Source: a virus. From it: a DNA stretch of 37,354 nt. The notes under the pieces are model-generated. The model had not been told where the DNA came from, made no database searches, and saw nothing but the letters and a program-made list of their open reading frames with translations. Position 1 is the stretch's first letter; each line of letters starts with the position of its first letter. A program made the position numbers and the translations under genes. Where the stretch lies: IMG/VR virus record IMGVR_UViG_3300049855_000159, positions 1-37,354 of that record. One strand, 5' to 3'. This document shows, one piece after another, positions 834 to 37,354 of this stretch.

Positions 834-1232
834 TCAAAACTTCTTTCCACCCTTCTTGAGACGGTTGGTAGGCTTGTGGTCAGCGCGGGAGGCGTTGTAT
901 TGCAGCTTCTCGAACAGCGCGCCAGCCAGGTCGTAGCCGTGGCCTCCACAGTAATCCATGATACGAATCACCGCATCTGCCAGCTCAACCTCGGCCATCT
1001 TGCGATGGGGCAGCTTGTCGTCCATCAGGTCTTTGCGCTCGCCTTCCATCGCCTCGGCGATTTCGCTGACGATGAGCATCAGCAGCTCGCCCTTGTTGCG
1101 CTTGAGCGGCTTGCCGGTCTTCACGTCGTTCCACCAGCCACCCTCTTTTGCGGCGACGTGGCACAGGCGCGCGGCGAACGTAACGCCCTGCTTTGCTGTG
1201 GATATAATCTCGTTCACTTTTTCTTTGGTCAT
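834..1232 (-). CDS. MazG-like nucleoside triphosphate pyrophosphohydrolase
   Basis: This 132-aa protein belongs to the all-alpha NTP pyrophosphohydrolase (MazG-like) group, which hydrolyses (d)NTPs to NMP and pyrophosphate, typically for nucleotide-pool control during phage growth. The metal-binding signature is visible: SEIAEAMEGER (E57 and E60 of the ExxE helix) followed by EVELADAVIRIMDY (E83 and D86, the ExxD helix). The tail is Lys-rich (LKKGGKKF). The ATG at 1232 overlaps the exonuclease stop (ATGA), which favours this start over one 19 codons upstream. Phage MazG proteins have also been proposed to alter (p)ppGpp levels; nothing here distinguishes the substrate. Confidence 0.82.
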   Translation of the reverse strand: MTKEKVNEIISTAKQGVTFAARLCHVAAKEGGWWNDVKTGKPLKRNKGELLMLIVSEIAEAMEGERKDLMDDKLPHRKMAEVELADAVIRIMDYCGGHGYDLAGALFEKLQYNASRADHKPTNRLKKGGKKF

Positions 1233-2041
1233 TTGCTGAGTCTGTTGATTTCGACCGGATACCCCGGCCAGGTGTTTGTCTTGACGCACTCGGCGTAAGT
1301 TGTGATGAGCCGCTCGTATTTGATGCGGCCTTCTTCCAAGATTGACCAGTCAAGCTGGTGAACCATCAGGTCGAACGGCGGAGCCTTCTCAATCGCGATG
1401 AGCAGGAAGTTGTCCTTGATGTCTCCAGGGTTCTGCGCGTTCCAGATGTCGCGATAGCTGTGGGCTTGGATGTCGTAGCCGAACTTCCAGATGGAGCGTA
1501 GGAACACATCCGGCCTTGCGTCCACAGTGGTCTTTATGTCGGCCAGGCAGTTGCCAGATGTCACAAGGTCAAGCCTCCCCTTGCGGCGAATGATGCCGCG
1601 TTCAGTGTGGTAGTCGTCGAACACCGACACTTCGCGGCGGCTGTTGCGAACAATGTCGCCAGCGATGGGGTGGTCGAGCAAGGCGGTTGCAATGTGGGTC
1701 GCCTTGCTCCATAGCGATGCGCTGATTGGCTCAACACCAGCAGGAACAGACGCCAGCCACGCCTTGCCGTCCTTGGTGCGCGCATCCAGACCTTCAGGCC
1801 GGACAATCCACCACGCGGGCTTCTCGGGCTCCATCGCAATCTGGCCAACAATCTTGCCGAGCGTGAGCGCATCCGACTCTTCGCGCTCTTCGTCGTCCTC
1901 GACTCCGGCGCGATAGAACTTCGGGGAGCGCCCAAGCCGCTTTAGGTCAGACTGGGCAATGCCGTAGTCGGCCCGGTATTCCCCGTCCGGCAGGTCGTAA
2001 TACACGCCCGCCGGACGGATAGATGTTGCAGGGTTGGTCAC
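1229..2041 (-). CDS. PD-(D/E)XK exonuclease, RecE/exonuclease VIII C-terminal-like
   Basis: This 270-aa protein has the layout of the PDDEXK-type domain found in putative exodeoxyribonuclease VIII proteins. Visible motifs are LGKIVGQIAM (about 61-70, the leading helix), REVSV (E137), RRKGRLDLV (D158), LADIKTT (D168-I-K170), and the Q motif DIQAHSYRDIW (Q192). D158, D168 and K170 are the expected metal and catalytic residues. Such enzymes digest one strand of duplex ends to make ssDNA for annealing. The annealing protein Bet lies directly upstream with a one-base gap, and together they form a SynExo-type recombination pair. The length is normal for the standalone domain. Confidence 0.88.
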   Translation of the reverse strand: MTNPATSIRPAGVYYDLPDGEYRADYGIAQSDLKRLGRSPKFYRAGVEDDEEREESDALTLGKIVGQIAMEPEKPAWWIVRPEGLDARTKDGKAWLASVPAGVEPISASLWSKATHIATALLDHPIAGDIVRNSRREVSVFDDYHTERGIIRRKGRLDLVTSGNCLADIKTTVDARPDVFLRSIWKFGYDIQAHSYRDIWNAQNPGDIKDNFLLIAIEKAPPFDLMVHQLDWSILEEGRIKYERLITTYAECVKTNTWPGYPVEINRLSK

Positions 2042-4091: not shown

Positions 4092-5139
4092 CGGGCAGGT
4101 CTTGCAAATCTTCAAACGGCTGTGCATCAGCGTCTGCCGTTGAGAGCGGCTCGTGTTCCGGCGCGTGTGCATCAGTTTGATACTTAGTGACAGGAGGAGG
4201 CGCGGAACTAGCACGCACGCGGCCACGGGAGATGCGCGGAACCAGGCGAGCGTTATTTGCGCCAGCACTATCATCGACACGCGCCAGCGGCGCAGAAGCT
4301 TTGCGGACGAACGAATGGAACGAGAGAAGGGCTTGTTCATATTTTTTGGCGATGATGCTGGAGAGTCTCCAGATGTAGGACTGCTTCGGTTTTGCTTCAG
4401 CGAGCGACTCCTGCTCCCCGGCCTCGGCGGTCTTGAAGAACTCGTCGCTGGGGGTGATGTCGAGTGTCCACTGGAACGTGCCGCCTTTGTTCAGCGCAAT
4501 CAAGTCCTCGGACTTAAACGACGTGTCCATGTTGTGCGACGCCATAATCTGACGGCGCACAGACTCATTCTCGGTGTCGAGGATGCGCAGCGAGTTGGGG
4601 TGGCGGGCGTGCAGGATGGCTTTCCAGTTGGCGCGGTAGGGGAAGGCGTTGATGGTGGCGAACCCGAGATTGAGCGGCTTGTTCTCCTCCAGCAGCCAGC
4701 GCACGGCGTTGTGGCAGATGGTGGCGTAGAGCAGCTTCATCTGGTTGACATCGGCGATGCTGGAGCGGTTGCAGACGTAGTGGATGAACGCGGCATCTTC
4801 ACTCTCCTCCTCAATCGCCGGAGCTTCTTCGTCCGGCCACTTCAGCCAGTCTTCAGGACGGCCATCACCGCACTTCAGCGCGACCTTCATGAACTTGCTG
4901 CGAAGTATCAGGAACTCGGGCCGGTTCTGGCGGAAGGAGATGCGCGCTAGACGTTGATACACGAAGTCGGCCTGGGACTGGGTGTGCAGCGGGCTCGCGG
5001 GCTTCACCATGAACACCTCGTCCTGGCAGTAGATGCCCGGTGTAGCGTAAACGGGCCAGCAGTATTCCTTGCCGTCCTTCACGTCGGCAATTCGCCACAG
5101 CTCAGTCTCACCAGGCGAGTGCATGGACATCTTGTTCAT
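4036..5139 (-). CDS. Phage protein of unknown function, downstream of terminase
   Basis: This 367-aa protein is coupled to terminase by an ATGA overlap at 5136-5139, so the pair is one operon. The first 230 or so residues look globular (for example FVYQRLARISFRQNRPEFLI, then helices around HYVCNRSSIADVNQMKLLYA, then PYRANWKAILHARHPNSLRI). The last 100 residues are low-complexity Ser/Ala/Pro/Arg sequence ending GKLCVGFIAKRRKPDVR. No nuclease, ATPase or HTH motif is evident. By position it may assist packaging, for example as a small-subunit substitute or procapsid factor, but this is only inferred. Confidence 0.82.
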   Translation of the reverse strand: MNKMSMHSPGETELWRIADVKDGKEYCWPVYATPGIYCQDEVFMVKPASPLHTQSQADFVYQRLARISFRQNRPEFLILRSKFMKVALKCGDGRPEDWLKWPDEEAPAIEEESEDAAFIHYVCNRSSIADVNQMKLLYATICHNAVRWLLEENKPLNLGFATINAFPYRANWKAILHARHPNSLRILDTENESVRRQIMASHNMDTSFKSEDLIALNKGGTFQWTLDITPSDEFFKTAEAGEQESLAEAKPKQSYIWRLSSIIAKKYEQALLSFHSFVRKASAPLARVDDSAGANNARLVPRISRGRVRASSAPPPVTKYQTDAHAPEHEPLSTADADAQPFEDLQDLPDGKLCVGFIAKRRKPDVR

Positions 5140-6713
5140 ATCGAGATTGCTCCGGTTGAGGTTGCCACTGACTGCTGCCCGAACATCTCGTGCGGGATTT
5201 CAGAGCCGATGGCGTAAGAGGTTGCGTCGAACGTGTGCCGGTGCTCGGAACCGGCGCGCACAGGCTCGGCCTTGGTCTTGCCCGGCTTCAGGTTCTGCGC
5301 CCACCCGACGTTCCACTTGCAGTGCGCTGAAATCAGCAGGCGGTTGGAGAAGAACAGGCGGCGGCATAGGGCAATGCGCTGCTTAATTGACCCGGCACCC
5401 TTCTTCACTGGGCGCATCCGGATTTGGCCGTTGCTTTCGGAGAAGAAAATCTGGGCGTCGTTCGTGTTCGATGAGGCGTCGTAGTTGAACAGGGACGAAT
5501 CGCACCAGTGATGCCATGCGGGCGCGTGTTTCAGCTTGTATTTCGCCATCATCCACTTGTTCCAGAACTGCGTGCGCTCCCACACCTTCGCGGCGAACTC
5601 GGCGACGCTAACCTGCTTGTCGATGCTGCACACCTCGTCGAACACGTCGTAGCACACGTCATCGTTCTCGTCGATGCGCGGGCAGATGAAGCTGGTCGAG
5701 TGGTTCAGCTCGCCGATGTCGGTGCCGGTGATTAGGAACGGCACGTTCGCGGGGGCAATCGTCTCCCACTCCGACTTGTCGGGCGAGCTGGCGTCTCCGA
5801 TGACGTGGATGTTGTGGACGAACTGCTCCTGAAATAATCCGGCCATCGTGTCCTTCACCCACTTGCCTTCGATGAAGCGCGCCCGCAGCGTCTTGTCGTG
5901 GCCATAGCTGTTCTCAAGCTCCTCGCGCTCCTGCGGGTTCAGGAACGGATTGTCATCCAGGCCGAACTGGAACCTCTCGTAAAACTGGCTATGGTTCTTG
6001 ATGCAGAACGGGGATTCGGGGTCGCCACCTTTGTAGAACAGGTCATGCAGCCAGTGCTCGTCGCCCTCTTCGGGCGGATTGCAGTCGAACAGGAACTGGT
6101 GATTGTTGAATGGGATTCCGATGACGCGAAGCTGCTCCTTCAACACGTCGAACACATGGCGGCTCTTGAACTGGTCGGCTTCGGAGAGCCAGATGCAGGA
6201 GAAGCGCATGGACTTGAACTTCTCTTCGACCTCGTGCTCGTGTTGCAGTGAGTGGATTTGGATTTCGCTCTTACCGCCGTGAACATTGTTGATGATGATG
6301 TATTCCATCTTGGTGACGGAATCCGCTTTCGGGCCTTCCAGGATTTTGATGCCCATGCCTGACTTTCTCCAGCCCTCAAGCACGAACTTAATCATGTCGC
6401 TCCACGCGCCACCCTTGGCGTTCTTCGCCGTCTTCGCTATCAGCGCGCCGACGCTGCCGTCGTTCTCCCACATGTTGCGGAGGAACTTGTTCGCGGTGAC
6501 AACTGACTTGGCCGACTTTCGGCAGCCGCTCAGCAGGACGTAGCGTTTGAAGCAGTCGAAAACCTCATACCCCTTCTCGGAAAGCAGCGGCACCCAGATG
6601 CCCTCCGGAGTGATGACGCCGCGCTGGAACCGGCACGCCTCGTCGTTCCACGGCGGTATGATATTCCAGGAGCTATACGGTGAGGGGAGGTCGTGGATTA
6701 GGTCTGTGGACAT
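5136..6713 (-). CDS. terL: Terminase large subunit
   Basis: This 525-aa protein is the ATP-driven DNA packaging motor and headful or site nuclease. The ATPase domain shows a variant Walker A SGCRKSAKS (62-70), Walker B CIWLSEAD (173-180, catalytic E178) and motif III FDCNPP (209-214). The C-terminal RNase H-like nuclease domain shows the three acidic positions: TGTDIGE (D332), WCDSSLF (D405) and HTFDATSYAI (D496). The length is normal. The gene is transcribed away from the portal and capsid genes, with an 89-bp divergent region between, which is less common than a shared operon. Its leader is A/C-rich (ACAAACAAAACA before the ATG) and lacks a Shine-Dalgarno. No small terminase subunit was recognised. 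Confidence 0.95.
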   Translation of the reverse strand: MSTDLIHDLPSPYSSWNIIPPWNDEACRFQRGVITPEGIWVPLLSEKGYEVFDCFKRYVLLSGCRKSAKSVVTANKFLRNMWENDGSVGALIAKTAKNAKGGAWSDMIKFVLEGWRKSGMGIKILEGPKADSVTKMEYIIINNVHGGKSEIQIHSLQHEHEVEEKFKSMRFSCIWLSEADQFKSRHVFDVLKEQLRVIGIPFNNHQFLFDCNPPEEGDEHWLHDLFYKGGDPESPFCIKNHSQFYERFQFGLDDNPFLNPQEREELENSYGHDKTLRARFIEGKWVKDTMAGLFQEQFVHNIHVIGDASSPDKSEWETIAPANVPFLITGTDIGELNHSTSFICPRIDENDDVCYDVFDEVCSIDKQVSVAEFAAKVWERTQFWNKWMMAKYKLKHAPAWHHWCDSSLFNYDASSNTNDAQIFFSESNGQIRMRPVKKGAGSIKQRIALCRRLFFSNRLLISAHCKWNVGWAQNLKPGKTKAEPVRAGSEHRHTFDATSYAIGSEIPHEMFGQQSVATSTGAISI

Positions 6714-13366: not shown

Positions 13367-13403
13367 GGCGGGGCACCCTTAACCGGGTGTCCCGCCATTC
13401 TCC
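13367..13403 (+). terminator. Hairpin terminator after the capsid gene
   Basis: GGCGGGGCACCC (13367-13378) pairs with GGGTGTCCCGCC (13385-13396) through a 6-nt loop. It is a 12-bp stem with one G-U on plus-strand RNA, followed by ATTCTCC rather than a T run. It could partially terminate or stabilise the capsid mRNA, reducing expression of the genes downstream. Confidence 0.65.
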
Positions 13404-13422
13404 AACAACAGCACAGCAACCT

Positions 13423-13833
13423 ATGGCAAAGACCGCTTATTTTATCCGTCGCAGCTCAATCTTCATCAAGCTGCGCCTCTCCACTGGCAAGGCAACCGAA
13501 TGGACTCCGTGCCTTGATGGTGGCGTCATGAAAACCACGGACGCAACGACCATTGAAGAGCTGAGGAAGATGTCTGACGAGAAACGTGGCGGAATCCGTG
13601 AAATCACGGAGGCCGAATACGAGGAGTTCAAAAAAAAACCAGAGCGGAAACGGGGCGGGCAGCCAGCCTGGCAGCCTATGACTACCCCTCCGCTTCCTCA
13701 AGCAGTGCCGAAGAAGGTTTCGTCCGCAAGCGGCGCTGCTGTGGAAACTAAACCCGCCGAGGCCGACGCGCTTCCACTGGTCGAGAAGTCGCAGTCCAAG
13801 CCTGAAACGGCAAAAGGAATTCTTGACCCGTGA
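13423..13833 (+). CDS. Hypothetical protein downstream of capsid
   Basis: This 136-aa protein starts at ATG 13423 inside the conserved CCTATGGCA context, which decides this start over the in-frame ATG at 13387 that lies within the terminator hairpin. The N-terminal half (MAKTAYFIRRSSIFIKLRLS, then DGGVMKTTDATTIEELRKMS) looks beta-rich and globular. The C-terminal half is a basic, Pro/Lys/Ser low-complexity tail. It may be a capsid accessory or head-completion protein. Its 3' end overlaps the GTG start of the adaptor gene by four bases (GTGA). Confidence 0.7.
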   Translation: MAKTAYFIRRSSIFIKLRLSTGKATEWTPCLDGGVMKTTDATTIEELRKMSDEKRGGIREITEAEYEEFKKKPERKRGGQPAWQPMTTPPLPQAVPKKVSSASGAAVETKPAEADALPLVEKSQSKPETAKGILDP

Positions 13834-14928: not shown

Positions 14929-16899
14929 ATGAAATATCTAATCACATTCTTGATGCTGGTTTGCGCGGTTGCATTTGGGCAGTCCACGAACAACGCGCAT
15001 CCGAATCTCCAGCGCACCGGATGGACGACGACTACGAACGCTCGCACGGCTTCTGTTGCCCTTGGTGGGACGAACCTTTACTTCGCGATTACCAACGCGG
15101 GCATTGTCATCGGCTCGGGCTCTGGCACAACCTACACCTTCATCCCCACGAACCAGCCGACCGGCTTCCTGCTGACGAACGGCAGCACGGTGATTTACGG
15201 GACGAACCGGAGCGTGACGCTGGCGGAGATTCCAGCGGCGGTGGTGACGAAAGAAACCAACAACATTCCAGACGACTCCGCTTTCACGCTAATTGGAGAA
15301 GCAAACGAAATTAAGCTTCGTGTGCCGTGGATTACCGGCTCGGGCGGGGACTCGATTTTGGGCGGTCCGGTATCAATCCAGAGCGGCGGAGTAGAGCTGG
15401 CAAGAATTACGCAGTCCGGATTTGTTGGAGGCGGTTCATCCCTGACCAACATCGGCACGAACGCGATGAGTGCAGCGGCCTACGCGGCGTTCATTGGCGG
15501 CGGAGGCTCCGCTCTCACATTCATCCCCACGAACCAGCCTCCTTGGTTTTGGCAGACCAACGGCAGCACTGTTCTCTACGGGACGAACTGGAGCGGGATT
15601 GTGACCAACGGACAGCCGACGGTGAGCTTTGGCCAATCCCTCACCATCGGAACTGGAGCGGACGCAGTGACATGGACAGCCTCCGGAGGCGGTGCGGTGT
15701 CGGACTCCACCAACCGTGCCGCTGCCTTTATTGCCTCCAACCTAACAGCTTTGACCAGCATAACGCTGGGACCATCCAACATCACAAGCTGGGCGCAGAT
15801 TGCAGGAAGTTCGTTGGACAAGGTCGCTAATTTGAATGGGGCCGCAACGAACATCACCCTCCGCGACTCAGACGGAGAAATAATTCTCAACAGCACTCCG
15901 TCAACAGTCACTATGCGCAGGGGCGGAAATTACGTTCTTCATTCGTCTAACGCCGGGACGGTTGTTTACGACGAGACAGAAGATATTGCAATGTCTGCCA
16001 CCGCGACCGGACTTTTCATCAAAGGTGAAATATCGTCAACCAACTTCACCGACCGCTTGAATGCGAAAGCAGGCAGCCTGAACGGCAGTGCAACCAACCT
16101 GACGCTCTACGACTCTGCTGGCGACGTGATGTTGTCCGGCACGCCGTCCGAAGTGACGCTGCGGCGGTCGGGAAGCGCGGCCTTGTCGTCCACGGCGAGC
16201 GGAACGCTCTTAAACGATGAAACTGAAACAGGTTTCCTTTTTGGCAGCACGGGAGACACGCGAGTAATTGCCAGCGCTGCTCACCCGCTTCTATTGACGT
16301 GGGGCGGCGGGGTGGTCAGCGGAGATACAATGCCCATATATGCCGATGACGGCGAGGTTCATTTCCCGGGAGCGATTGTTAACGCGCAAAAATTCATCGC
16401 GGCGGGAAGTATAGGGTTCCAAGGCAACGGTGATGAGTTGACGTTTTCGCTCAAGCCGATGACGAACGCCATTACCGTGAATGGGGCATATCCGAACACA
16501 GACAACACCGTGGTGGCGCAAGTGTTTGGGTCGGCTCTTTACTCCCGGCCATTTTTGGCTGGCGGGCGGTGGCTTTGGATTCTGCCCTCCGCCGCTGGCT
16601 ACAAGACGAATATCATCCGGCTACGGTTTGCCACGACGAGCAGCGCATCCCCGTCCAACATCACCCTTGGGTTGGGTATTATTCCAGAGTCAGGTTTGTG
16701 GACGGCAAGAGCCGCCGACCTATCCTCCACCGTAGCGGTTCCGGGCGGCGGTAATACGTTCACAAACATCGTCACGGTCAACTGGACAAACACGACCGGA
16801 AGTGCGTGGGGGGTCGAGCAGTGGGCCTTCAATTTTTCAACCGCCTCGGCAGCGTCAGGCACATTCTTCATCGGAGGAAAACAGGAGCTTTACCCGTGA
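14929..16899 (+). CDS. Exported tail-fibre-like protein with signal peptide and internal repeats
   Basis: This 656-aa protein starts at ATG 14929, giving a clear Sec signal peptide (MKYLITFLMLVCAVAFGQ). The mature part is Thr/Asn/Gly-rich and beta-prone. A 26-residue unit (FIPTNQP... TNGSTVxYGTN) occurs at about residues 71 and 198. A longer unit (LNGxATNxTLxDS... TPSxVTxRR) occurs at about 302 and 384, an 82-residue period. The C-terminus (about 500-656) looks like a globular beta domain. It is coupled by GTGA overlap to the next exported protein. It looks like a fibre shaft, but phage tail fibres are normally cytoplasmic, so the signal peptide is odd. It could instead be a secreted or surface protein made during infection. 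Confidence 0.72.
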   Translation: MKYLITFLMLVCAVAFGQSTNNAHPNLQRTGWTTTTNARTASVALGGTNLYFAITNAGIVIGSGSGTTYTFIPTNQPTGFLLTNGSTVIYGTNRSVTLAEIPAAVVTKETNNIPDDSAFTLIGEANEIKLRVPWITGSGGDSILGGPVSIQSGGVELARITQSGFVGGGSSLTNIGTNAMSAAAYAAFIGGGGSALTFIPTNQPPWFWQTNGSTVLYGTNWSGIVTNGQPTVSFGQSLTIGTGADAVTWTASGGGAVSDSTNRAAAFIASNLTALTSITLGPSNITSWAQIAGSSLDKVANLNGAATNITLRDSDGEIILNSTPSTVTMRRGGNYVLHSSNAGTVVYDETEDIAMSATATGLFIKGEISSTNFTDRLNAKAGSLNGSATNLTLYDSAGDVMLSGTPSEVTLRRSGSAALSSTASGTLLNDETETGFLFGSTGDTRVIASAAHPLLLTWGGGVVSGDTMPIYADDGEVHFPGAIVNAQKFIAAGSIGFQGNGDELTFSLKPMTNAITVNGAYPNTDNTVVAQVFGSALYSRPFLAGGRWLWILPSAAGYKTNIIRLRFATTSSASPSNITLGLGIIPESGLWTARAADLSSTVAVPGGGNTFTNIVTVNWTNTTGSAWGVEQWAFNFSTASAASGTFFIGGKQELYP

Positions 16900-19577
16900 G
16901 CGATTTGAAAAAATGGCTGGTGCTTAGTCTGGTTACGCTTGGACTTGTTCTGCCCGCAAGGCCCGCCACCCTCACCGCCTACCGCACCCACTGGACGAAC
17001 GGATACTACTCGCCTAGCGCGTCCGGCCAGTCTGCGTCAGACCACATTCTGTCCCACTGGCGTCCCGGCCCGGACGCAGTGATGCCGCTCGCAAGCATTA
17101 CCTACCTCGGCGGTTCTGGTTTGATGGCTGACTCCGGCGTGTGGAATACGAACTGGATGTTCTACGGCATGACCGGATTCACGGCTATCGCCCATGCGCA
17201 GACGAACGAATCGCCATTTTGGAATAAACGCTGCACGCTCGTCAGCCGGGTTGCCGCCTTGCAATGCGGCCATGCGTTCAGTGCGCCCGTAGGTGGAAGC
17301 ACGAACAACGCCACGAACTATTGGTTCCTGTTCGTGGATTCAACGAACGGCCAACACTGGCGGCGGGCGGTGTCAACGCGAAGCCAGTATGATTTTTCAA
17401 ACCCTTACAATGATTTGATGGTGTTTGTTTTTAACGAGCCACTCCCGGCGACGATACAACCAATGGCAATTCTTGACCACAGCCATGCTTCAGTGATGGG
17501 TCGTCCGGGGTATTCAACCAACACCGCCACATTCAGGCCGAAATTCTTAGTCGTCCAACAAACCAATGCAAACGCGAACGCCCTAAGTTATTCCCGTGGG
17601 GCCACCACCGAAGGGGTTGGCCGAGGCGACAACATCCTGTCCGGCTCGGGCGCGTATGGGTTTGCTGGAGGCGACAGCGGCTCTCCGTCATTCATCGTCG
17701 TAAGCAACCGACTTATCTACACACCGATGTATGGCTTTGGCACGGTCAGCAACATGCTCTGGACGGTCAACTTCGCGACAACGAATGCAGGTCTTGGCTA
17801 CACCACGAACGACTACCCCGTAACATTGCTGAATCTGGAGCAGTTCCCCAATCCCGGCAACGATAGGCCGGTTGCGACCAATCAGGCCGTGGCAATGATG
17901 ACCAACTCTACGATTGGCTTGACGCTGACATCTTACGACTTAGACGGCCCGCAGACAAATTACACCATTATCACAAGCCCAACGAACGGCAGCTTGAGCG
18001 CACTGACTGGCTCATCGGTCACATACACATCGGGCGTGGCGGGTGGGGACTGGTTCACGTTCCGAGTTGGCGACGGTTCACTCTACTCCACCGGCACCGT
18101 GGCTGTGACCATCACAAACTCCCCGGCCCCGGGCGGTGGCGCGTTGGATTCCAACGGCTCCAGCGGCGATGTGGCTGCGAAGATTGCGGCAGCCTCAGAC
18201 GGCGACACGGTGACAATCCCGGCGGGTTCATTCACTTGGTCAAACAACGTCACCATCACCGGCAAGGGCATCAAGCTGCAAGGCGCGGGCGCAGGTCGAA
18301 TCGTTGGCCGTAGCCTTACGAGCATTGCTATCGGCACCGGCTCCAAAGTGTTCACCACCCAAAGCGGGCTGACGCTGCCGAACGGCACCACGCTGCGCAT
18401 TGAGCGTCCCGGCAATGACGTGGACGGCACGCAAGGCGGCAGTGGGCGCACTTGGACACGGCTCTGGATGGAAGGGACTGTGACCAGTTATTCCGGCTCA
18501 ACGCTGACAATGGACATCACCAGCACGGGCGGCAGTGGCACTCATGCGATTTGGGTCATCGGCACCCGGCCACAGACAACCATCACCTACACGAACGCGG
18601 TCAACGGCTCCATGATTACGGCGGTCGAGGACGCATCGCACACGGTTGAGATTACCGGCATCCGGTTCTTGTGGTCGAACGATGGGGCTGGAGTCCATCA
18701 CATCACCGTCAATGGCTCGGGCAAGCCGGTGAAGATTCACGACAACTACTTTGAAATGGATGGTGAGGAAGACACGTTCAACATCCTCGTTGAGCGGAAC
18801 CAAGGCATCATCTGGAGCAACTCGTTTCTGTCCTTCCCGTTCTCCGTGGCAGGCACGGGCATTAAGGTTGCGCACCAAACGGATGCTTGGACGAGTCTCA
18901 GCAAGATGGGCACGAACGATGTTGGTCAAACCAACTGCCTCTACATCGAGGACAATGATTTCCATGCGTTCATCAACTGCATGGACTTCGACAACAACTC
19001 GCGGACGGTGGTGCGGAACAACCTGTTCAACAATGCAGGCATGACCAGCCACGGCGCGGATTCATCCTACTGGGGCATCCGTCATCTGGAGCTTTACACG
19101 AACACGTTCGTCTTTAACAACCTTGGCGCGGACAGCTTCAACAATCAGTGGTGGCTTTACCTGCGGGGCGGCACCGGAGCCATCACCGGCAATTCGTTTG
19201 ACAACATCAATTCAAGCGAGTGGACAGACATCACCGAGTTTCGGCTGGCTGCGTTGAACTTGAACGAGAACTGGGGGCCGAACCCCTGCTTCGGCGCGAA
19301 CAATCCCGGCGTGCAATATCCCTGCCCGCGACAGGTTGGATTCGGTCGCGTGACCGGAGCGGCGGGCAATGACTCTCAGACCTACGCGGGCGACAGTGAA
19401 CCGCTGTATTTCTGGGGTAACACGGGCACGGCATTGTTTGGTTACAAGAACGGCGAAGGCTCTTGCACCAGCCCGGATTCATCCAGCGACTACATCCAGC
19501 ACGCCCGCGATTTCTACACCAACGGCACCGCGAAACCCAACTGGCAGGCGTCGCTTTACCCACATCCATTACGATGA
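16896..19577 (+). CDS. Exported trypsin-like protease fused to Ig-like and beta-helix domains
   Basis: This 893-aa protein starts at GTG 16896, overlapping the previous stop (GTGA). A signal peptide is visible (DLKKWLVLSLVTLGLVLPA). About residues 40-310 resemble a trypsin-fold serine protease: H126 in ALQCGHAFS, D173 in NDLMVFVF and S261 in GGDSGSPSF, at spacings (47 and 88) close to chymotrypsin (45 and 93). Residues about 325-408 resemble a bacterial Ig-like/cadherin-type domain (ITSPTNGSLSALTG, WFTFRVGDG). From about 425 to 850 is a right-handed parallel beta-helix (repeated DNxF/NNxF turns such as IEDNDFHAF and VRNNLFNN). It ends DYIQHARDFYTNGT, a common end motif of such helices. By structure it could be a tailspike that degrades surface glycans and proteins, but the signal peptide implies export. 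Confidence 0.85.
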   Translation: MSDLKKWLVLSLVTLGLVLPARPATLTAYRTHWTNGYYSPSASGQSASDHILSHWRPGPDAVMPLASITYLGGSGLMADSGVWNTNWMFYGMTGFTAIAHAQTNESPFWNKRCTLVSRVAALQCGHAFSAPVGGSTNNATNYWFLFVDSTNGQHWRRAVSTRSQYDFSNPYNDLMVFVFNEPLPATIQPMAILDHSHASVMGRPGYSTNTATFRPKFLVVQQTNANANALSYSRGATTEGVGRGDNILSGSGAYGFAGGDSGSPSFIVVSNRLIYTPMYGFGTVSNMLWTVNFATTNAGLGYTTNDYPVTLLNLEQFPNPGNDRPVATNQAVAMMTNSTIGLTLTSYDLDGPQTNYTIITSPTNGSLSALTGSSVTYTSGVAGGDWFTFRVGDGSLYSTGTVAVTITNSPAPGGGALDSNGSSGDVAAKIAAASDGDTVTIPAGSFTWSNNVTITGKGIKLQGAGAGRIVGRSLTSIAIGTGSKVFTTQSGLTLPNGTTLRIERPGNDVDGTQGGSGRTWTRLWMEGTVTSYSGSTLTMDITSTGGSGTHAIWVIGTRPQTTITYTNAVNGSMITAVEDASHTVEITGIRFLWSNDGAGVHHITVNGSGKPVKIHDNYFEMDGEEDTFNILVERNQGIIWSNSFLSFPFSVAGTGIKVAHQTDAWTSLSKMGTNDVGQTNCLYIEDNDFHAFINCMDFDNNSRTVVRNNLFNNAGMTSHGADSSYWGIRHLELYTNTFVFNNLGADSFNNQWWLYLRGGTGAITGNSFDNINSSEWTDITEFRLAALNLNENWGPNPCFGANNPGVQYPCPRQVGFGRVTGAAGNDSQTYAGDSEPLYFWGNTGTALFGYKNGEGSCTSPDSSSDYIQHARDFYTNGTAKPNWQASLYPHPLR

Positions 19578-20900: not shown

Positions 20901-21275
20901 ATGACTATTGAAGAACTCTCGATTTGGCTTTGGAATCCTTACGTCGGCACATTTGCGGTTGTCATTGCCCTTGGCTATGTCGTCCGCGCTGTTCCTAAAA
21001 TCTCCAACGCCTACATCCCAATCATCGGCATGGTGGTTGGGGCGTCCTTCTTCGCCACGGTTGCGTCACTGACTCTAGCCCGCAACCCTGAGCATCCGGC
21101 GGCATGGACTGTGATGTGCTTCGGCGTGGGCTGGGTCATCTCAGCATTTGCATGGCTCGTTCACCATGTTTTAATTTCCCGGCTTGAGGACAAGCTTGGT
21201 GAGTGGTTCCCTCCTCTGGGAAACTGGCTCAAGAAAACCAGCGACAGCAAAACAACAACGCCTCCAGCACCATGA
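20901..21275 (+). CDS. Holin candidate
   Basis: This 124-aa protein has three hydrophobic segments: YVGTFAVVIALGYVVRAV, YIPIIGMVVGASFFATVASL and VMCFGVGWVISAFAWLVHHV. A charged, Pro-rich C-terminal tail (KTSDSKTTTPPAP) follows. Phage holins are short, carry 2-3 membrane segments and a polar tail, and accumulate to open the inner membrane at a set time. It follows the coiled-coil anchor gene by 12 bp. No endolysin with a classical fold was recognised next to it. Confidence 0.72.
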   Translation: MTIEELSIWLWNPYVGTFAVVIALGYVVRAVPKISNAYIPIIGMVVGASFFATVASLTLARNPEHPAAWTVMCFGVGWVISAFAWLVHHVLISRLEDKLGEWFPPLGNWLKKTSDSKTTTPPAP

Positions 21276-21327: not shown

Positions 21328-22110
21328 ATGGCATCCCCAATCACATCTGAAGATTTCGACAACCAGAATATCAACGGCCCTCTGTGCGACCAGTTTCGAG
21401 AGAAGCTTTTGAACAACGACAAGATTGCTCAACTGCTCGACTACCTGTTTGACGCTGACGGAAACATCGCTGCCGACTTCATGGTTGACCTGAAGCGAAG
21501 CCTGATGCCGATTGGAACGCTGCGCATGTCTGCCGCCGCCGACTCTGGTGCGGTTGTTGAAGACGGTGCAATCTGGCTTCCTTGCGGTGGAGCCGCCTAT
21601 GCTAGAGCTGACTATCCCGAGCTTGAGGTTTTGCTTGGTGAAACCTACAACGTCGCCGGAGACAATCAGGCGTTCAAGGACGACTACTTTCGCACTCCAA
21701 ACACAGCCGGACGATTCCTGCTTGGCTCGGGAACATCAACCGCGTCTGGAGCAACAGCTCACGCCATCGCATCTTACGGTGGCGAGGAGACGCACGTTCT
21801 TACGCTGGCCGAGCTTGCAGCTCATGACCACGGTGGCGGAGTCGCATACGCTCGTGGAGATTTTTCTCCTGCGGACAAGATTACAGAGGAGCAGGCGGTT
21901 GAGCTTGGGCTTGACACGCTGAATGCGGGCATTGTCCATGAGGACGGAGGCCACACATACAACTCAAATAACACCATCTGGGGAAGGTGCGCCACGCCAA
22001 TAATGAACGAGGATGGTGAAGACACGGCTCACAACACTATGCCGCCGCATGTCACTTGTGCGTGCTATATCCTGGCTGGCTACAAGGCGAACAATGCCTG
22101 GGCATCGTAA
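21328..22110 (+). CDS. Phage tail collar-type fibre protein
   Basis: This 260-aa protein starts at ATG 21328, preceded by GAAAGGA about 6 bases upstream, one of the few clear Shine-Dalgarno sites here. Residues about 61-136 match the phage tail collar pattern: PIGTLRMSAAADSG, GAIWLPCGGAAYARADYPEL, then FRTPNTAGRFLLGSG. A later part has ETHVLTLAELAAHDHGGG and ends MPPHVTCACYILAGYK. Histidines in AAHDHGG resemble metal-binding residues of T4 gp12-type receptor-binding tips. It is probably a host-recognition fibre. Its stop overlaps the nozzle gene start (TAATG). Confidence 0.85.
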   Translation: MASPITSEDFDNQNINGPLCDQFREKLLNNDKIAQLLDYLFDADGNIAADFMVDLKRSLMPIGTLRMSAAADSGAVVEDGAIWLPCGGAAYARADYPELEVLLGETYNVAGDNQAFKDDYFRTPNTAGRFLLGSGTSTASGATAHAIASYGGEETHVLTLAELAAHDHGGGVAYARGDFSPADKITEEQAVELGLDTLNAGIVHEDGGHTYNSNNTIWGRCATPIMNEDGEDTAHNTMPPHVTCACYILAGYKANNAWAS

Positions 22111-27607: not shown

Positions 27608-28165
27608 ATGGCCAACGATAAGAAAACATTGCTGAACCGACGCTCCGCTCGAATCGGAGCCGTCAGCGACTTTTCGTTACCGTCTCCGCCTGAGATGCCG
27701 GAGAGCTTGAAGAGGAATTATCCCGAGCTGCGCAACTATGAGCGCCTGATGGATGAGTGGGTTCGCTCAATGAACACCTCGCTGATTCGTGCGCTGACCC
27801 GTGGACAAGTCGAGACTGCTGAAGATACGACGACGGTGGTGCAGAGCAATTTGATTTTCAAGTCTTCAGACTCGGTCACGTTCAAGCGCGAGGACGATGT
27901 CGTCACCGCGTTCGTTGAGCATCCTGAAGTTGTGATTCCTCCGCCAGTTCCAGGAGAACCTGGAAGGCCGGGCAGCGCCGGGCCACAGGGACCACAAGGG
28001 GACACCGGACCAGCAGGCGCGACGGGTGCGACTGGGGCGACCGGCCCGGCAGGACCCACGGGGGCGACAGGACCCGCAGGCGCAAATGGCCTCAAACCAA
28101 CCGCCGCGACTTCTGTATGTAACGGCGACGGCACGATGACTCTGACCTTTACCGCTTGGGCTTGA
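27608..28165 (+). CDS. Collagen-like repeat protein
   Basis: This 185-aa protein starts at ATG 27608. After a helical head (about 30-70, LRNYERLMDEWVRSMNTSLI) comes a run of 15 Gly-X-Y triplets (residues 116-160), with GPQGPQGDTGPAG and many Gly-Ala-Thr, then a short C-terminal tip (AATSVCNGDGTMTLTF). Collagen-like stretches form trimeric rods in phage fibres, and the short C-terminal part may bind or trimerise. Probably a fibre or head-surface appendage. Confidence 0.82.
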   Translation: MANDKKTLLNRRSARIGAVSDFSLPSPPEMPESLKRNYPELRNYERLMDEWVRSMNTSLIRALTRGQVETAEDTTTVVQSNLIFKSSDSVTFKREDDVVTAFVEHPEVVIPPPVPGEPGRPGSAGPQGPQGDTGPAGATGATGATGPAGPTGATGPAGANGLKPTAATSVCNGDGTMTLTFTAWA

Positions 28166-30974: not shown

Positions 30975-33900
30975 ATGAGAATCGACTTCGACGGTCAAAT
31001 CATCGAGGTGCCTGACGACTTCTCTGATGCGGACATCCAGCAGGTGTTGCGTCAGCACTCGGGGCAGCCTGCGGGGGAGTCTTCCGGTGGTGAGCTTGCC
31101 TCGTTCCTTCGACCGGCCAAGATTTCAGACATTGCCAACGCGCCGATGCCGCGCATGGAAGCTCGCGTCAACGAACTGGCCGCTATTCCAGCCACCGAAA
31201 GAACCGCCGAGCAGGTGGATGAGCTTGGGCAGCTTGAGGGCGCGCTGGAGCAGGGCTCAGGAACCCTCTACGACACTGCTGCCGCTGCTGGCGAGGCTTT
31301 CAAGGCTGGTATGCACCGGCTTGGTGAAACTGGATGGACTGGGATGCAGCTTCGCAACGAGCCGATGGTTGACCTTCCGGGAGGGATGACACTGACCTTC
31401 GGTGGCGCGCTGCTTCCGAAGCAATTCGCCTCCAACGCCGCGAAAGAATCCCGCGAAATCGCACTTGAGGCTCGCGACATGGCTGCTGCGGCAGAGCAGC
31501 GCCGGGATGGGATTGCGCAGGATGATGTTCAGCGGTTTGCGGGTGATGTTGCCGGTGCAGTTCCAAGCCTCATACCTGCTTTCGCAACCGGCCCGCTTGG
31601 GTTCGGCGCTACGGTTGTCACGTCTGGATTGCAGCAGGGCCTGTCCACGCTATCCGAGGCGCAGGAAGCCTACAAGAATCGCGGCATGTCCGAAGACGCT
31701 GCGTTCAAAGAATCGCTCGCGCCCGCCGCCGCTGATGCGGTCATCACGGCTGGAATCACCGCTCTCTCTGGGAAGATTTTCGGGGCTGGCGCTGAAGGCA
31801 TGACACTGCCGCAACGCGCTGCTGGTGTGAAGAGCTGGGTCGTCAACGCAATCAAGCAGGCGTTCGGTGAATCAGCCGAGGAAGGCTCTCAGCAATTCAT
31901 CAGCGACTACATGATTGCGAAGTCGTCCTATAACCCGGACATGACGCTGGAGCAGGCGTTCAGGGGCGCTCTGAACGCGGCTGCGGTTGGCGGTATTCTT
32001 GGTGGAAGCATGGCGGCTGGTCATCAGGGCGTTCAAAAGGTTTACGACAAGCGGTTTGAGAACGCGCTGTTCAATGACCCTGGTTCAGTGCCTGACGCTG
32101 CTGTTGACGCTGCTGCTGGCCTGCCTCCGAAGCTTGGGTTTTCGGATTCAGACATGGACAGGCTGAACAATGTTAGAGAACGGGATGACTTAACGCGCCG
32201 AGTTCTTATTGGCGATGGCCCTGTTGAGAAGCGGAATCTTCGCAGTCAGTTTGCTGGCATGACATTTGAGGATGCGGCCACCCTTCGAGCTGGGCTGTCT
32301 CAGGCCGAGCAGTCTCGCCGCGTTGAGCGCATGGCTGATGCGCGTCGTGAGGCTGCCAGAATCAAACGTGAAGAAGCTGAGGCTGAGGCGCGGGCCGAGG
32401 CTGCCACTGCCGCCCGCGAGCGGCTGGCCCTGCTTAACTCTTTCCGCCAGCAACCAGACGCAACTCCTGCATCCGCTTCAGTTGACGCCGCTTTAATCGC
32501 GCAGCAAACCGCAGCGCGTCGCGCACAGGCTGCTGCCGCAGAGGCCGCGAGAACCGCACCCCCGTCTCCGACCAGTGCGGTCATTGGTGAAAAGGTTTCC
32601 GCATTCGAGCAGGTGCAGCGTGAGCGTGCTGCGAGAATCAATGCCGCAGAGCAAGAGCGCGCAAGGGTTAATCAGGAGCGGATGGTTCAGCTTGAAATTG
32701 ACAGGAAGGTCGGCGAAGCGAGGGCTCAGGCCGCAGCACTCGCTCCTGAGTTTGAGCGGGCTCGCGAAGATTCGATTCGCCAGCGAGAGCTTGAGACTGC
32801 CCGGCGAACGGAAGTGTTGCAGGCCGACAATCCCTACCTCGGTCGTCCGATGGTGGAGCTGAACAGTCTTGAGCAGCGGCTCGCAGAAGACCCCGCCGCA
32901 AGCAGGGAGCTTGCGCTTGTTCGCGCCGCGAAGCGCGGGCAGTCCATCGCATCTATTCCGAACGAGCAGCAGGTTGCTGAGGTGAACGCCCGCAAGCAGA
33001 TTGAATCCTCGCTTGCCGACGCCCGCCAGCAGCAGGAAGATTTCATGCGTCAACGCGGTGCGGCAGCGCCAGCGCGCCAGCAGCCTGCGAAGGAAGGATG
33101 GAACCCTGATGGAACATTCACCCTGGTCATCGACGGAGCGCCCGTTACCGTGGTTCGCAAAGAGGACACTGGCCAGGCGATGTCTGGATTCGGCAAGGCT
33201 CGCGCTGCTGTTGTTGAGAAGCTCAGCCAGGCAATCCTGTTCGATGTTGAAAACGAGCGCACCCCAAGCAAGCGCACCTATCGTTCGTTGAAGGCTGACA
33301 CCAAGAAGCCGGGTGTCAAGTTCTCGGGCGGTAAGCATGTCCTGAGAATCTCCCGCAAGAACGACGTTCCACGCGAAGGTGTCACAACCACGAAGAATTT
33401 CACACGTCGCTCTGCTGGCCCTGATGTCGATGCTGCGGTTGAGGCTGTCACCAAATGGGTGAAGGCATCTCCGGCATTCCGAGGCTTCCTTCCATCCAAG
33501 CTGGAGCTTGTCAGTGCCGGTGCGATTGCCGACCCTGAAGATGATGGCGCATCCGAAATAACGCCACAGGAAGCTGCTCAGAACATCGCCAACCGTATCG
33601 CTGAGCTTGAGGCTCAAATCGCGAACATCAAACGTGAGGCTGCCGCAGCCGAGCAGTCTGGCGCTTTCGGCTCAACGGCGAAGGCGAAGAACATGCGTCG
33701 CAAGCTGGGCGGGCTGAAGGTTGTTCCGAAGTCTGAAGACGAGCGCGCCCGTGAGAAGGTGGAGATGGTTTACTACGGCGTGAATGCTCCTGCGAACACG
33801 AAGGCCGTCGGCCTTGAGGTTGAGTTGCAGAAGATGAAGAACATGCTGAACCTGGAGTCTTCGCTTCGCGAGGCGGCTCAGCAGATGAAGGGCTTCTATT

Positions 33901-36900
33901 CCACCGATGGCAAATATCTTGGCGACAACACCGAGCAGGCGAAGGAGACGATTCAGATTCTTTCCGCTCCACAAACTGAGACGGTGGAAGTCCAGCCGAT
34001 TACACAGGAGCAGGCCGAGGCGTTCGCAAAATTCAAGGCGCAGAGCAAGCCGCCAAACGCTGCAACTGACAGCGCGTATGGCATGAGCGCGGAGCAGGGT
34101 GGAAGGTTTGAGCTTGGTCGTGTTGAAAAGGGGCGCAAGGGGAGAAAGCTTTCTGCGGAAGAGGAGGCTGAAGTCAGGTCTTCTCAAAACTGGACAGACC
34201 AATACAAGTTGCGCAGGCAGCGTGAAATGAGGGGGACTCGCGGTGTTGAGTCTCTTCCAGCGCAGCCTGTTGAGGCTCCGACTCAAACCAAGCTTGAGAA
34301 GCCGAAGACCGTTCGCAAACTTCGCGGCGCTCCGCTTGGAACGCAGGCCAACCCGACCGCAGAGCAGATGGCCGCATCGTTGCAGGGCAAGACGCCTCCG
34401 CCATCCAGCACGAGATACAACCGCGTGGTTGCCGGTGCCGCCGAGGTGAAGACGCCAAGCAAGGAAGCTGGCTCGTTCGCTCCGGCGGTTGAGTCCGCGA
34501 ACCAGACCGCCAACCCGAGCCCTGAATACATCCAGATGAAGAATCTGGGCTGGCCGGATTACGCATTGCGCCAGATGAGTGAGGCGCAGGTCACTGTGGT
34601 CATGGCCACCGGCAAGACCTACTCGCAGGCTTTCATCGACGGAGAGGTCAAGCTGAACAAGGCGGCTGGGAGCATCAACGAGTTTCAGTCTGCAAGCTTT
34701 GGGCGGCTGGGATACTCCGGCGCTCCGGTCGAGAACCTGTCTGAGTTCGCTGCCGAGTATCTGCTGACCGCGATTGAGAACCCAAACAAGCTGAAGGCTG
34801 CGAAGGGCAAGGCTTCCGCCATTCCACTGCGCCGCGCCACCGATGAGGAGCGCACGTTCTATGGCACGTCGGCGGTTCCTGGTTTGGGCAAGGGGTTCAG
34901 GAAGCACAACCTTGGCCCTGGCCGCGACCGCCTTCTTCGTAGCGTTGGCGAGGCGACCGGAATCACCCGCGCCAAGACCGAGGGTGAGCGCATCGAGAAC
35001 GAGCAGAAGCGCGCCACACAGCAGCGTGAGCGCGAGGCTGGCGCATCCGGAGTCAGGACATACAGCAACCTCGCCGAGTTCGCGGCGATGGCTGAGACGC
35101 TTTCCAATCTTGATTCGTGGGTTGGCTCTGGCGCTGTCGCTGCCGACCTCAGCAAAGACCCGACCGCCGATGCTGCATTCGCTGATTTTAAGAAGCTGAC
35201 TGGACTTGAAGACCTTGAGGCGATTTCGTTCCTGAAGCGCCTGTTCTCGGAGCCAGGTGTTCGCTACACCCTAACTGAGTTTGGAGGCAACAGGTATTCC
35301 AGCGATGTGATTCGCGTGAAGCAGGAGATGTTTGAGAAGGAGGAGCGCAAGAAGCTATTCGGCCTTTATCTGAACGAGGCGAACGAGCTTGGTAAGCGCG
35401 CATACAAGGCTGGCCAGATTACCAAAAAAACAGCGAAGAAGTTCAAGTCTTTCGAGGCTGCCAGAAAAAGCATTGAAGGCTCAATCGGTCGCATCTCGCA
35501 GATTCTTTCTGCTGGCAAGATTAATGGCGAATCTCTTACCGGAAAGCAGCGCGCAGAGCTGGAGGGTGAGCGCGCCCGGCTTGTGAAGTGGCTCGAAGAT
35601 GGAGACGAGGCGGTTTACGCACTGGAAGAGCGCGTGTGGAAACTTGGTGAGGAGCTGAAGGCGCAGCGCAAATTCGGCGTTGACGTGGGTGAAAAGATTA
35701 CCACTCGCGAGAGGAAGACGGATTCTCTGGAGAAGGAGATTGCCAACCGCAAGATGACTGGTGTGATGGCGGTGTGGAACGAGGTCGCGAACCGTCGCAT
35801 CGACGCGCTCATCGAATTCACTGGCAAGAGGGGTGCGGGGACGCTCGACGCAAATCTAAGGGGCGACCTTTCATTTGTCGGCGTGATGATTTCCAAGCTT
35901 GGATATGACGGCGCGAACCTTGCGCTGCGCTCCATCAAGGTCATCATGAACAAGGCTCCGTCAATCGCGGCTGGCATCGAGCAGTCCATTGAGTATCTCG
36001 TGAAGAAGTTCCCGGCGCAGATGAAGCAGTATGGCAAGGAGATTGGGGATGCGATGCGGAACGAAATCAAGTCGATGACGGACGTGCCGAACACCATCGA
36101 CGAGGACAAGAAGCGGTATGCTGAAATCACTGCCGAGATGGGCGTGCTTGTGAAGAACGCCAAAGCTGCTGGCAAGCCGCTGGTGATGGAGACGCCTGAA
36201 TGGATTGCGCTTCAGAACGAGCTGGACTCAATCAAGAACAAGTATCCCGAAGGTGGCATTGGACTTGTTCCTGGCACCGAAGAGAAAGCTGACGATTTTT
36301 TTTTAGGTAAGGGTGGACGCCCGTTCACAGGAACGCTTTATCGCGGTGTAAAAGATGGCGGGGCTCAATATACCCAGGACGGCAGGACTTTCTGGGCCGT
36401 CAACAAGAAGCAGGCTGCGCAGTATGGGCCGAATGTTTCAAGCGAAACAGTCGTGTTCCAAAACATGCTTGATGCAAATGACTGGATGGACGCAAAGCGC
36501 AAGCTTGGACTTCCAAAGTCAGCTACTATGCCTGAACTATTTTCGGAGGCTGAGAGGCTTGGTTTTGATGGTATCCGCTGGAAGGCAAACGGCGAGGTTG
36601 AATACATCAAGCTGGCTGCAAAAGAGGAGAAAGGAGCTGATTCAAATGGCAAAGTGCAAGGGCAAAAAGAAGGGCAAGTAGCTGAGGCAAAACCGGCGCA
36701 GCTTCCCCGCGTCAACTCTCCATTCGCGAATGCCGAACAGGTGGCTGCTGCAACTGGTGTTCCTGGAATCACAGGTGAGCAGGCTCAAGCCATCGCCCGC
36801 AAGGCTGGCGCTCAGGCTGCTGCAATCCCGTCCGCTTTGGCGCAGCAGGTTGCTGGCGTGATGTCCGTGAAGAACCCGGATGTGCAGCAGCAGGCCGAGC

Positions 36901-37354
36901 AGTCCGCGCTGCGGCGCGTTGCTGGGTTCGCGTCCGTTTCAACGAGCCCTGTTCCATTTGAGTCGCTGAGCCCTGACGAGCGAAAGCAGGTTGGAATCGC
37001 AATCTCGAAGCAGCATATCGAGATGAGTCGCGACGCATCCGCGCTCCGCTCACGCATCAAGGCGGCGGAAGAATCACTTACGAAACTCGACCCGGCCAAG
37101 GCCGAGCATAAGGAGAAGTCCGCGAAGCTCGCCGGGCTGAAGGCGGCACAGAAAAAGATTGAAGCAATCATGTCCGACCCGTCCTATCGCGAGCAGGTTC
37201 GCAAGGCGGCTCGCGAGGTTGGGATTCATCGCGGCTACATCACCGAGTCGGATGGCGTTGTCCACATTGAAGACCCGCTCAATAGGTCTGGCAAGAAGGT
37301 TGATATTTCCCTCATGCCGACAGCGGCGCACGAGGATGCGAACCTTCAAGCCCT
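30975..37354 (+). CDS. Giant polyvalent/ejection-type protein, 3' end beyond window
   Basis: From ATG 30975 the frame stays open to the right edge (at least 2126 residues, no stop found along its length). The N-terminus MRIDFDGQIIEVPDDFSDAD resembles the start motif of phage polyvalent/ejection proteins. A Gly/Ala-rich membrane-like region follows (about 192-226 and 330-352), with QAFGESAEEGSQQFISDY (about 295-312) between, as in proteins that help DNA cross the envelope. Long charged coiled coils run from about 440 to 700. An ART-like segment lies at about 1787-1880: TLYRG (R1790), FWAVNKKQAAQYG, GFDGIRW and VEYIKL (E1876). A run of nine T (36296-36304) lies just before it. More helical regions follow to the edge. 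Interpreted as a cargo protein delivered with the DNA. ART activity is inferred. Confidence 0.85.
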   Translation, partial: MRIDFDGQIIEVPDDFSDADIQQVLRQHSGQPAGESSGGELASFLRPAKISDIANAPMPRMEARVNELAAIPATERTAEQVDELGQLEGALEQGSGTLYDTAAAAGEAFKAGMHRLGETGWTGMQLRNEPMVDLPGGMTLTFGGALLPKQFASNAAKESREIALEARDMAAAAEQRRDGIAQDDVQRFAGDVAGAVPSLIPAFATGPLGFGATVVTSGLQQGLSTLSEAQEAYKNRGMSEDAAFKESLAPAAADAVITAGITALSGKIFGAGAEGMTLPQRAAGVKSWVVNAIKQAFGESAEEGSQQFISDYMIAKSSYNPDMTLEQAFRGALNAAAVGGILGGSMAAGHQGVQKVYDKRFENALFNDPGSVPDAAVDAAAGLPPKLGFSDSDMDRLNNVRERDDLTRRVLIGDGPVEKRNLRSQFAGMTFEDAATLRAGLSQAEQSRRVERMADARREAARIKREEAEAEARAEAATAARERLALLNSFRQQPDATPASASVDAALIAQQTAARRAQAAAAEAARTAPPSPTSAVIGEKVSAFEQVQRERAARINAAEQERARVNQERMVQLEIDRKVGEARAQAAALAPEFERAREDSIRQRELETARRTEVLQADNPYLGRPMVELNSLEQRLAEDPAASRELALVRAAKRGQSIASIPNEQQVAEVNARKQIESSLADARQQQEDFMRQRGAAAPARQQPAKEGWNPDGTFTLVIDGAPVTVVRKEDTGQAMSGFGKARAAVVEKLSQAILFDVENERTPSKRTYRSLKADTKKPGVKFSGGKHVLRISRKNDVPREGVTTTKNFTRRSAGPDVDAAVEAVTKWVKASPAFRGFLPSKLELVSAGAIADPEDDGASEITPQEAAQNIANRIAELEAQIANIKREAAAAEQSGAFGSTAKAKNMRRKLGGLKVVPKSEDERAREKVEMVYYGVNAPANTKAVGLEVELQKMKNMLNLESSLREAAQQMKGFYSTDGKYLGDNTEQAKETIQILSAPQTETVEVQPITQEQAEAFAKFKAQSKPPNAATDSAYGMSAEQGGRFELGRVEKGRKGRKLSAEEEAEVRSSQNWTDQYKLRRQREMRGTRGVESLPAQPVEAPTQTKLEKPKTVRKLRGAPLGTQANPTAEQMAASLQGKTPPPSSTRYNRVVAGAAEVKTPSKEAGSFAPAVESANQTANPSPEYIQMKNLGWPDYALRQMSEAQVTVVMATGKTYSQAFIDGEVKLNKAAGSINEFQSASFGRLGYSGAPVENLSEFAAEYLLTAIENPNKLKAAKGKASAIPLRRATDEERTFYGTSAVPGLGKGFRKHNLGPGRDRLLRSVGEATGITRAKTEGERIENEQKRATQQREREAGASGVRTYSNLAEFAAMAETLSNLDSWVGSGAVAADLSKDPTADAAFADFKKLTGLEDLEAISFLKRLFSEPGVRYTLTEFGGNRYSSDVIRVKQEMFEKEERKKLFGLYLNEANELGKRAYKAGQITKKTAKKFKSFEAARKSIEGSIGRISQILSAGKINGESLTGKQRAELEGERARLVKWLEDGDEAVYALEERVWKLGEELKAQRKFGVDVGEKITTRERKTDSLEKEIANRKMTGVMAVWNEVANRRIDALIEFTGKRGAGTLDANLRGDLSFVGVMISKLGYDGANLALRSIKVIMNKAPSIAAGIEQSIEYLVKKFPAQMKQYGKEIGDAMRNEIKSMTDVPNTIDEDKKRYAEITAEMGVLVKNAKAAGKPLVMETPEWIALQNELDSIKNKYPEGGIGLVPGTEEKADDFFLGKGGRPFTGTLYRGVKDGGAQYTQDGRTFWAVNKKQAAQYGPNVSSETVVFQNMLDANDWMDAKRKLGLPKSATMPELFSEAERLGFDGIRWKANGEVEYIKLAAKEEKGADSNGKVQGQKEGQVAEAKPAQLPRVNSPFANAEQVAAATGVPGITGEQAQAIARKAGAQAAAIPSALAQQVAGVMSVKNPDVQQQAEQSALRRVAGFASVSTSPVPFESLSPDERKQVGIAISKQHIEMSRDASALRSRIKAAEESLTKLDPAKAEHKEKSAKLAGLKAAQKKIEAIMSDPSYREQVRKAAREVGIHRGYITESDGVVHIEDPLNRSGKKVDISLMPTAAHEDANLQA

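What the first reader, a model, noticed from the sequence alone, without database searches (positions are those of the whole stretch)
36330..36620. ADP-ribosyltransferase-like module embedded in the giant protein
TLYRG with R1790, then FWAVNKKQAAQYG, GFDGIRW and a final VEYIKL with E1876 follow the order of motifs seen in phage-borne ART-type domains of polyvalent proteins. Such domains modify host proteins early in infection. The short segment looks inserted between coiled-coil regions, and nearby codon use appears more AT-rich, suggesting a recently acquired module.
Basis: partly seen in the sequence, partly recalled or inferred. Interest (0 to 1): 0.6.

Follow-up and report, generated by a model that had tools for sequence, protein, structure and literature searches.

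The report
Divergent ADP-ribosyltransferase domain in phage protein
Near the end of a giant protein of an uncharacterised phage sits a small domain that is almost certainly an ADP-ribosyltransferase fold of the kind phages often carry in large proteins thought to be injected with their DNA; its oddity is an arginine where nearly all relatives carry the NAD-binding histidine.

Summary
The motifs are at the stated coordinates. No library or single-sequence search recognises the segment, but a profile of 42 viral ART-PolyVal domains (all matching Pfam PF18760; query not included) does: hhalign score 45.0, P 2e-8, against a best of 22.6 in 1,000 controls. An 81-sequence HMM gives 16.3 bits against 11.4 for the best of 19,924 shuffles. 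AlphaFold2 with family members as alignment rises from pLDDT 47 to 91, and its structural neighbours are overwhelmingly ADP-ribosyltransferase folds. The fold is therefore well supported. The second motif is aromatic-x10-Tyr (F1806, Y1817), the diphtheria/PARP type, not a Ser motif, so it is not an R-S-E cleft. The Arg replaces a His present in 42 of 42 aligned relatives, giving R-F-Y-E instead of H-Y-Y-E. The base-composition argument for recent acquisition is weak. An Arg variant recurs: 11 of 12 IMG/VR contigs with a YRGT pattern are true ART-PolyVal domains, so this is an unusual but not unique variant. Catalysis, target and injection remain inferred.

The parts
30975..37352 (+). giant ORF, at least 2126 aa, truncated by the contig end; contains the module
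   Evidence: no Pfam, PHROGs or NCBIfam family at significance
36330..36617 (+). ART-PolyVal-like ADP-ribosyltransferase domain, residues about 1786-1881
   Evidence: hhalign P 2e-8 against 42 PF18760 domains with controls; HMM 16.3 bits; AF2 pLDDT 90.8, pTM 0.79; ART neighbours
36342..36344 (+). codon of R1790, at the NAD-binding His position on strand 1
   Evidence: column is His in 42 of 42 aligned relatives; Arg at the same position in 11 other viral ART-PolyVal contigs
36390..36425 (+). F1806-x10-Y1817, strand 2 plus following helix, aromatic-x10-Tyr motif
   Evidence: F1806 column: Y 27, F 11, W 4; Y1817 column: Y 28, F 8 of 42
36561..36572 (+). G-F-D-G motif; D1865 invariant in the family
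   Evidence: D 42/42 and G 42/42
36600..36602 (+). codon of E1876, candidate catalytic Glu on the last strand
   Evidence: column E 17, T 8, Q 5, D 2 of 42; MAFFT aligns VEYIKL with the family's EYVAF strand

Best explanation
A divergent ADP-ribosyltransferase domain related to ART-PolyVal (Pfam PF18760), embedded in a giant phage protein probably packaged in the virion and ejected into the host with the DNA. Shown: sequence homology to ART-PolyVal domains and a confident ART-fold prediction. Inferred: NAD+ binds the central cleft, held by R1790 (in place of His) and stacked by F1806 and Y1817; E1876 (and/or the invariant D1865) activates the N-glycosidic bond; ADP-ribose is transferred to a host macromolecule, most likely a protein, to favour the phage at the start of infection. 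Target unknown.
For: hhalign against 42 PF18760 domains without the query: score 45.0, P 2e-8; whole 2126-aa protein P 4.8e-6, best hit exactly at residues 1807-1879; controls at most 20.7 (400 shuffles) and 22.6 (600 real protein tiles). HMM of 81 domains: 16.3 bits, shuffles at most 11.4, real tiles at most 7.0. MAFFT places all four motifs on family motifs. AF2 pLDDT 90.8 and pTM 0.79 with family alignment. Neighbours: AcrIF11 6kyf E 2.2e-4; MbcT Z 8.0, NatT 6.9, diphtheria family 5.6-7.1, ParT 6.4, PARPs about 5, cyanophage A4 pre-ejectosome 9k3a Z 5.8; many BFVD hits are named large polyvalent or ART-PolyVal-like proteins. Literature: ARTs are the commonest protein-modifying enzyme domains of polyvalent proteins, predicted to be injected (PMC5512222, PMC9503650).
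Against: Pfam's own PF18760 model does not reach the segment and no relative is found by direct search. The AF2 alignment was supplied by me and contains the family, so the fold is partly imposed; the single-sequence model is poor. The conserved His is absent; the C-terminal F-x-P-x-Q-I-K-S element is absent. VIA Z values of 5-8 are middling. No virion proteomics; relatedness of the giant protein outside the module is undetected.
Confidence: 0.68

Rival explanations
1. Same fold but an NAD+-consuming enzyme (NAD glycohydrolase or phosphorylase) rather than a transferase: the strand-1 Arg with an aromatic strand 2 resembles RES-domain enzymes, which break NAD+ without modifying a protein.
For: MbcT (Z 8.0), NatT (Z 6.9), ParT and RES-Xre are among the closest structures; NatT active site includes R23 (PMC11535050), and the alignment of model 1.. 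on NatT 13.. would put R1790 (model residue 11) on R23 if ungapped; NatT degrades NAD+ (PMC11535050).
Against: RES profile PF08808 does not match; sequence homology is to ART-PolyVal, which keeps aromatic-x10-Tyr and the GYDG motif, as here; E1876 is present whereas RES has lost the Glu (PMC9503650). ParT, also among the neighbours, is titled a Prs ADP-ribosylating toxin, so resemblance to RES-like folds does not exclude transfer.
Confidence: 0.15
2. A degenerate, non-catalytic ART fold kept as a binding or structural module of an ejection protein.
For: His lost, C-terminal element lost, very divergent; an ART-like fold match lies inside a phage pre-ejectosome structure (9k3a).
Against: Aromatic pair, D1865 and E1876 are all retained and Arg is a recurrent replacement in otherwise canonical family members.
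Confidence: 0.14
3. A T4 Alt/Mod-type R-S-E ART.
For: Arg on strand 1 and an E-x-E (E1874, E1876) at the last strand.
Against: No Ser motif on strand 2; F1806 and Y1817 occupy the H-Y-E clade's aromatic positions; best profile is PF18760 type; R-S-E ARTs of the Alt type are stated not to occur in genuine polyvalent proteins (PMC5512222).
Confidence: 0.03

Closest known systems
ART-PolyVal (Pfam PF18760; Tox-ART-HYD2 / N4-ART group of phage polyvalent proteins)
   Same: homologous by profile-profile comparison; same order of Y-x-G, aromatic-x10-Tyr, G-[FYH]-D-G and E-[YI]-[VI] elements; sits in a giant phage protein
   Different: Arg for the strand-1 His; F-x-P-x-Q-I-K-S tail missing; below Pfam's cut-off; the nearest direct match found has about 28% identity over 79 aa
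AcrIF11 (PDB 6kyf), phage/plasmid anti-CRISPR ART
   Same: top Foldseek PDB hit (E 2.2e-4), small diphtheria-like ART
   Different: stand-alone protein; key residues H-F-H-D (PMC12421852) against R-F-Y-E here; no evidence on target
RES-domain toxins MbcT / NatT
   Same: similar fold, Arg at the start of the fold (NatT R23)
   Different: NAD-degrading, Glu lost, no match to the RES profile
T4 Alt (R-S-E ART injected with DNA)
   Same: proposed delivery and use
   Different: different ART clade; no Ser motif here

Membership tests
ART-PolyVal (PF18760) | score above the curated Pfam cut-off (31.2 bits) | tested here: not met
   no match even at E 10
ART-PolyVal (PF18760) | homology to the family by a broader profile | tested here: met
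   all 42 profile members match PF18760
ART-PolyVal (PF18760) | His on strand 1 | tested here: not met
   R1790; but other PF18760 domains with Arg here score above cut-off (L241 65.4, L245 50.6 bits)
ART-PolyVal (PF18760) | aromatic on strand 2 and aromatic eleven positions on (x10 spacing) | tested here: met
   F1806, Y1817
ART-PolyVal (PF18760) | Asp/Glu near strand 5 (GYDG Asp; Glu on last strand) | tested here: met
   D1865 (42/42 in family), E1876
ART superfamily | ART fold | tested here: met
   AF2 pLDDT 90.8 with ART neighbours; prediction only, and the alignment contained the family
ART superfamily | NAD+-dependent activity | not testable with these tools
   needs assay
R-S-E ARTs (T4 Alt/Mod) | Ser motif on strand 2 | tested here: not met
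   strand 2 is TFWAV
RES domain (PF08808) | match to the RES profile | tested here: not met
phage polyvalent proteins | giant multidomain protein with several effector domains | tested here: inconclusive
   at least 2126 aa, one recognised domain, C-terminus off the contig
phage polyvalent proteins | packaged in the virion and injected | not testable with these tools
   only context: downstream of tail/virion genes

The most novel reading that the evidence does not exclude
The His-to-Arg exchange marks a recurrent branch of polyvalent phage ARTs (R-[F/Y]-Y-E) with altered chemistry, for example NAD+ cleavage or a different acceptor, that has not been separated from the H-Y-D/E enzymes.
Probability: 0.2. 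Interest if true: 0.5.

Novelty: new variant of a known kind. Interest (0 to 1): 0.36.

Why it matters
Standard libraries miss this domain completely, so ART effectors in giant phage proteins are probably under-counted. The Arg form, seen in about seven different-looking viral domains plus this one, gives a concrete test of whether the conserved His of these ARTs can be exchanged and what that does to the reaction.

Tried and rejected
Pfam, PHROGs, NCBIfam scans of the segment and whole protein and phmmer against PDB: nothing. tblastn in phages and plasmids, and 8-mer scans of viral and genome contigs: no relative. FW-x6-A-x2-Y...G[FY]DG DNA patterns in viral and genome contigs: only wrong-frame or unrelated matches. 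Hhalign against a seven-sequence profile: no signal; it appeared only with the larger, more varied profile. PF18760 over 398 genomes of one phylum: no hit and controls silent, so uninformative. Close-kin comparison: only a 6.9-kb contig shares the terminase. I first took E1874 as the catalytic Glu from the N4-type domains; the larger family favours E1876. R-S-E membership rejected (see above).

Full report
Observation. The window is a whole linear IMG/VR virus record. The ORF 30975-37352 is open at the contig end and at least 2126 aa long.

Direct searches fail. Neither the segment nor the whole protein matches Pfam, PHROGs or NCBIfam at significance, and tblastn or word scans find no relative in phages, plasmids, viral contigs or genome contigs. 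The phage itself is an orphan: its terminase has one 58% relative on a 6.9-kb contig.

Building a family for comparison. The literature names Roseovarius Plymouth podovirus 1 as the prototype of polyvalent-protein ARTs (PMC5512222). Its domain led to other phage ARTs, and an alignment of those recovered 80 viral loci. All 42 domains of the resulting profile A4 match PF18760.

Homology test. Against A4, which excludes the query, hhalign gives score 45.0 and P 2e-8 for the segment, and P 4.8e-6 for the whole protein with the best match at residues 1807-1879. Shuffled segments reach 20.7 (400) and real protein tiles 22.6 (600). An HMM of 81 domains scores the segment 16.3 bits (P 7e-7), with shuffles at most 11.4 (19,924) and real tiles at most 7.0 (5,166 tested). 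With the Arg-type domains added the score is 17.4 bits; one shuffle then reaches 14.5. The nearest direct match is 28% identity over 79 aa (L170). The segment was chosen because it looked like an ART, so P values carry some selection, but the margin over controls is wide. These local alignments start at strand 2; the strand-1 match (TLYRG on VVYHGT) rests on the MAFFT alignment, where one of the four MAFFT settings tried (global) placed it differently.

Fold. The single-sequence model is poor (pLDDT 47). With the family alignment A3 it is 90.8 with pTM 0.79, strands and helices in ART order. Because the alignment already assumes homology, this is supporting rather than independent evidence. 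Foldseek's only PDB hit below E 0.001 is the anti-CRISPR 6kyf, that is AcrIF11 (PMC12421852), followed by MbcT, NatT and tankyrase. The VIA-align rows shown are ART or RES structures, apart from 9k3a chain B, a cyanophage A4 pre-ejectosome protein over residues 1421-1594; I could not read that paper, so whether that region is called an ART by its authors is unknown to me. Many BFVD neighbours are named large polyvalent or ART-PolyVal-like phage proteins. The A3 profile's weak PDB matches are PARPs and an exotoxin over the first two motifs.

Active site. At the R1790 column 42 of 42 relatives have His. F1806 falls on Tyr/Phe/Trp, Y1817 on Tyr/Phe, D1865 on an invariant Asp, E1876 on a column with Glu 17, Thr 8, Gln 5. 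The spacing aromatic-x10-Tyr belongs to the H-Y-E clade (diphtheria, PARP; family knowledge), whose canonical set is H-Y-Y-E (PMC12421852). The query thus reads R-F-Y-E. [quoted passage not shown] Whether the acid that matters is D1865 or E1876 is unresolved.

Is the Arg unique? A DNA pattern for G-[DENK]-P-L-x-[hydrophobic]-Y-R-G-T found 12 IMG/VR contigs; 11 encode genuine ART-PolyVal domains with Arg (29 to 78 bits against the family HMM), in about seven different-looking sequences, several in ORFs of about 2500-3000 aa. Two tested with Pfam pass the PF18760 cut-off.

Context and mechanism. Upstream genes include a tail-collar protein, a virion structural protein and a collagen-like fibre. 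This fits a late, virion-associated giant protein, by analogy with injected polyvalent proteins, but packaging is inferred. The most likely action is ADP-ribosylation of a host macromolecule after ejection; NAD+ degradation in the manner of RES enzymes is the main rival because of the Arg.

Composition. Third-position GC is mildly low in a zone wider than the domain, and similar dips occur elsewhere in the ORF. It does not show recent acquisition.

Verdict. A well-supported, divergent ART domain that standard libraries miss; ordinary in kind for giant phage proteins, unusual in its Arg.

Noticed in passing
L243 (ORF of 2971 aa) and L186: Tandem ART domains in one giant ORF; in L243 an Arg-type (YRGT) is followed by a His-type (YHGT).
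   Followed up: no
L198, L233, L236: ART-PolyVal-like domains with Thr at the strand-1 His position (YTGT), a further exchange at the NAD-binding site.
   Followed up: no
window 1229-2041 (-): PDDEXK-like DUF3799 protein (PF12684, E 5e-23), probably a phage recombination exonuclease.
   Followed up: no
window 5136-6713 (-): Large terminase on the opposite strand to the structural genes; one relative at 58% on a 6.9-kb contig and otherwise orphan.
   Followed up: partly
window 16806-19577 (+): 923-aa ORF with a bacterial Ig domain (Big_9, E 1e-7).
   Followed up: no
window 20901-21275, 21328-22110, 27608-28165 (+): Weak Hol44-type holin match, tail collar domain protein, and a collagen-repeat tail fibre.
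   Followed up: no
window 13387-13833 (+): 148-aa ORF with a very weak match (E 0.04) to large polyvalent protein-associated domain 16.
   Followed up: no
PDB 9k3a chain B, residues 1421-1594: An ART-like fold match inside a solved cyanophage pre-ejectosome protein; direct structural precedent for such folds in ejection proteins if confirmed.
   Followed up: partly
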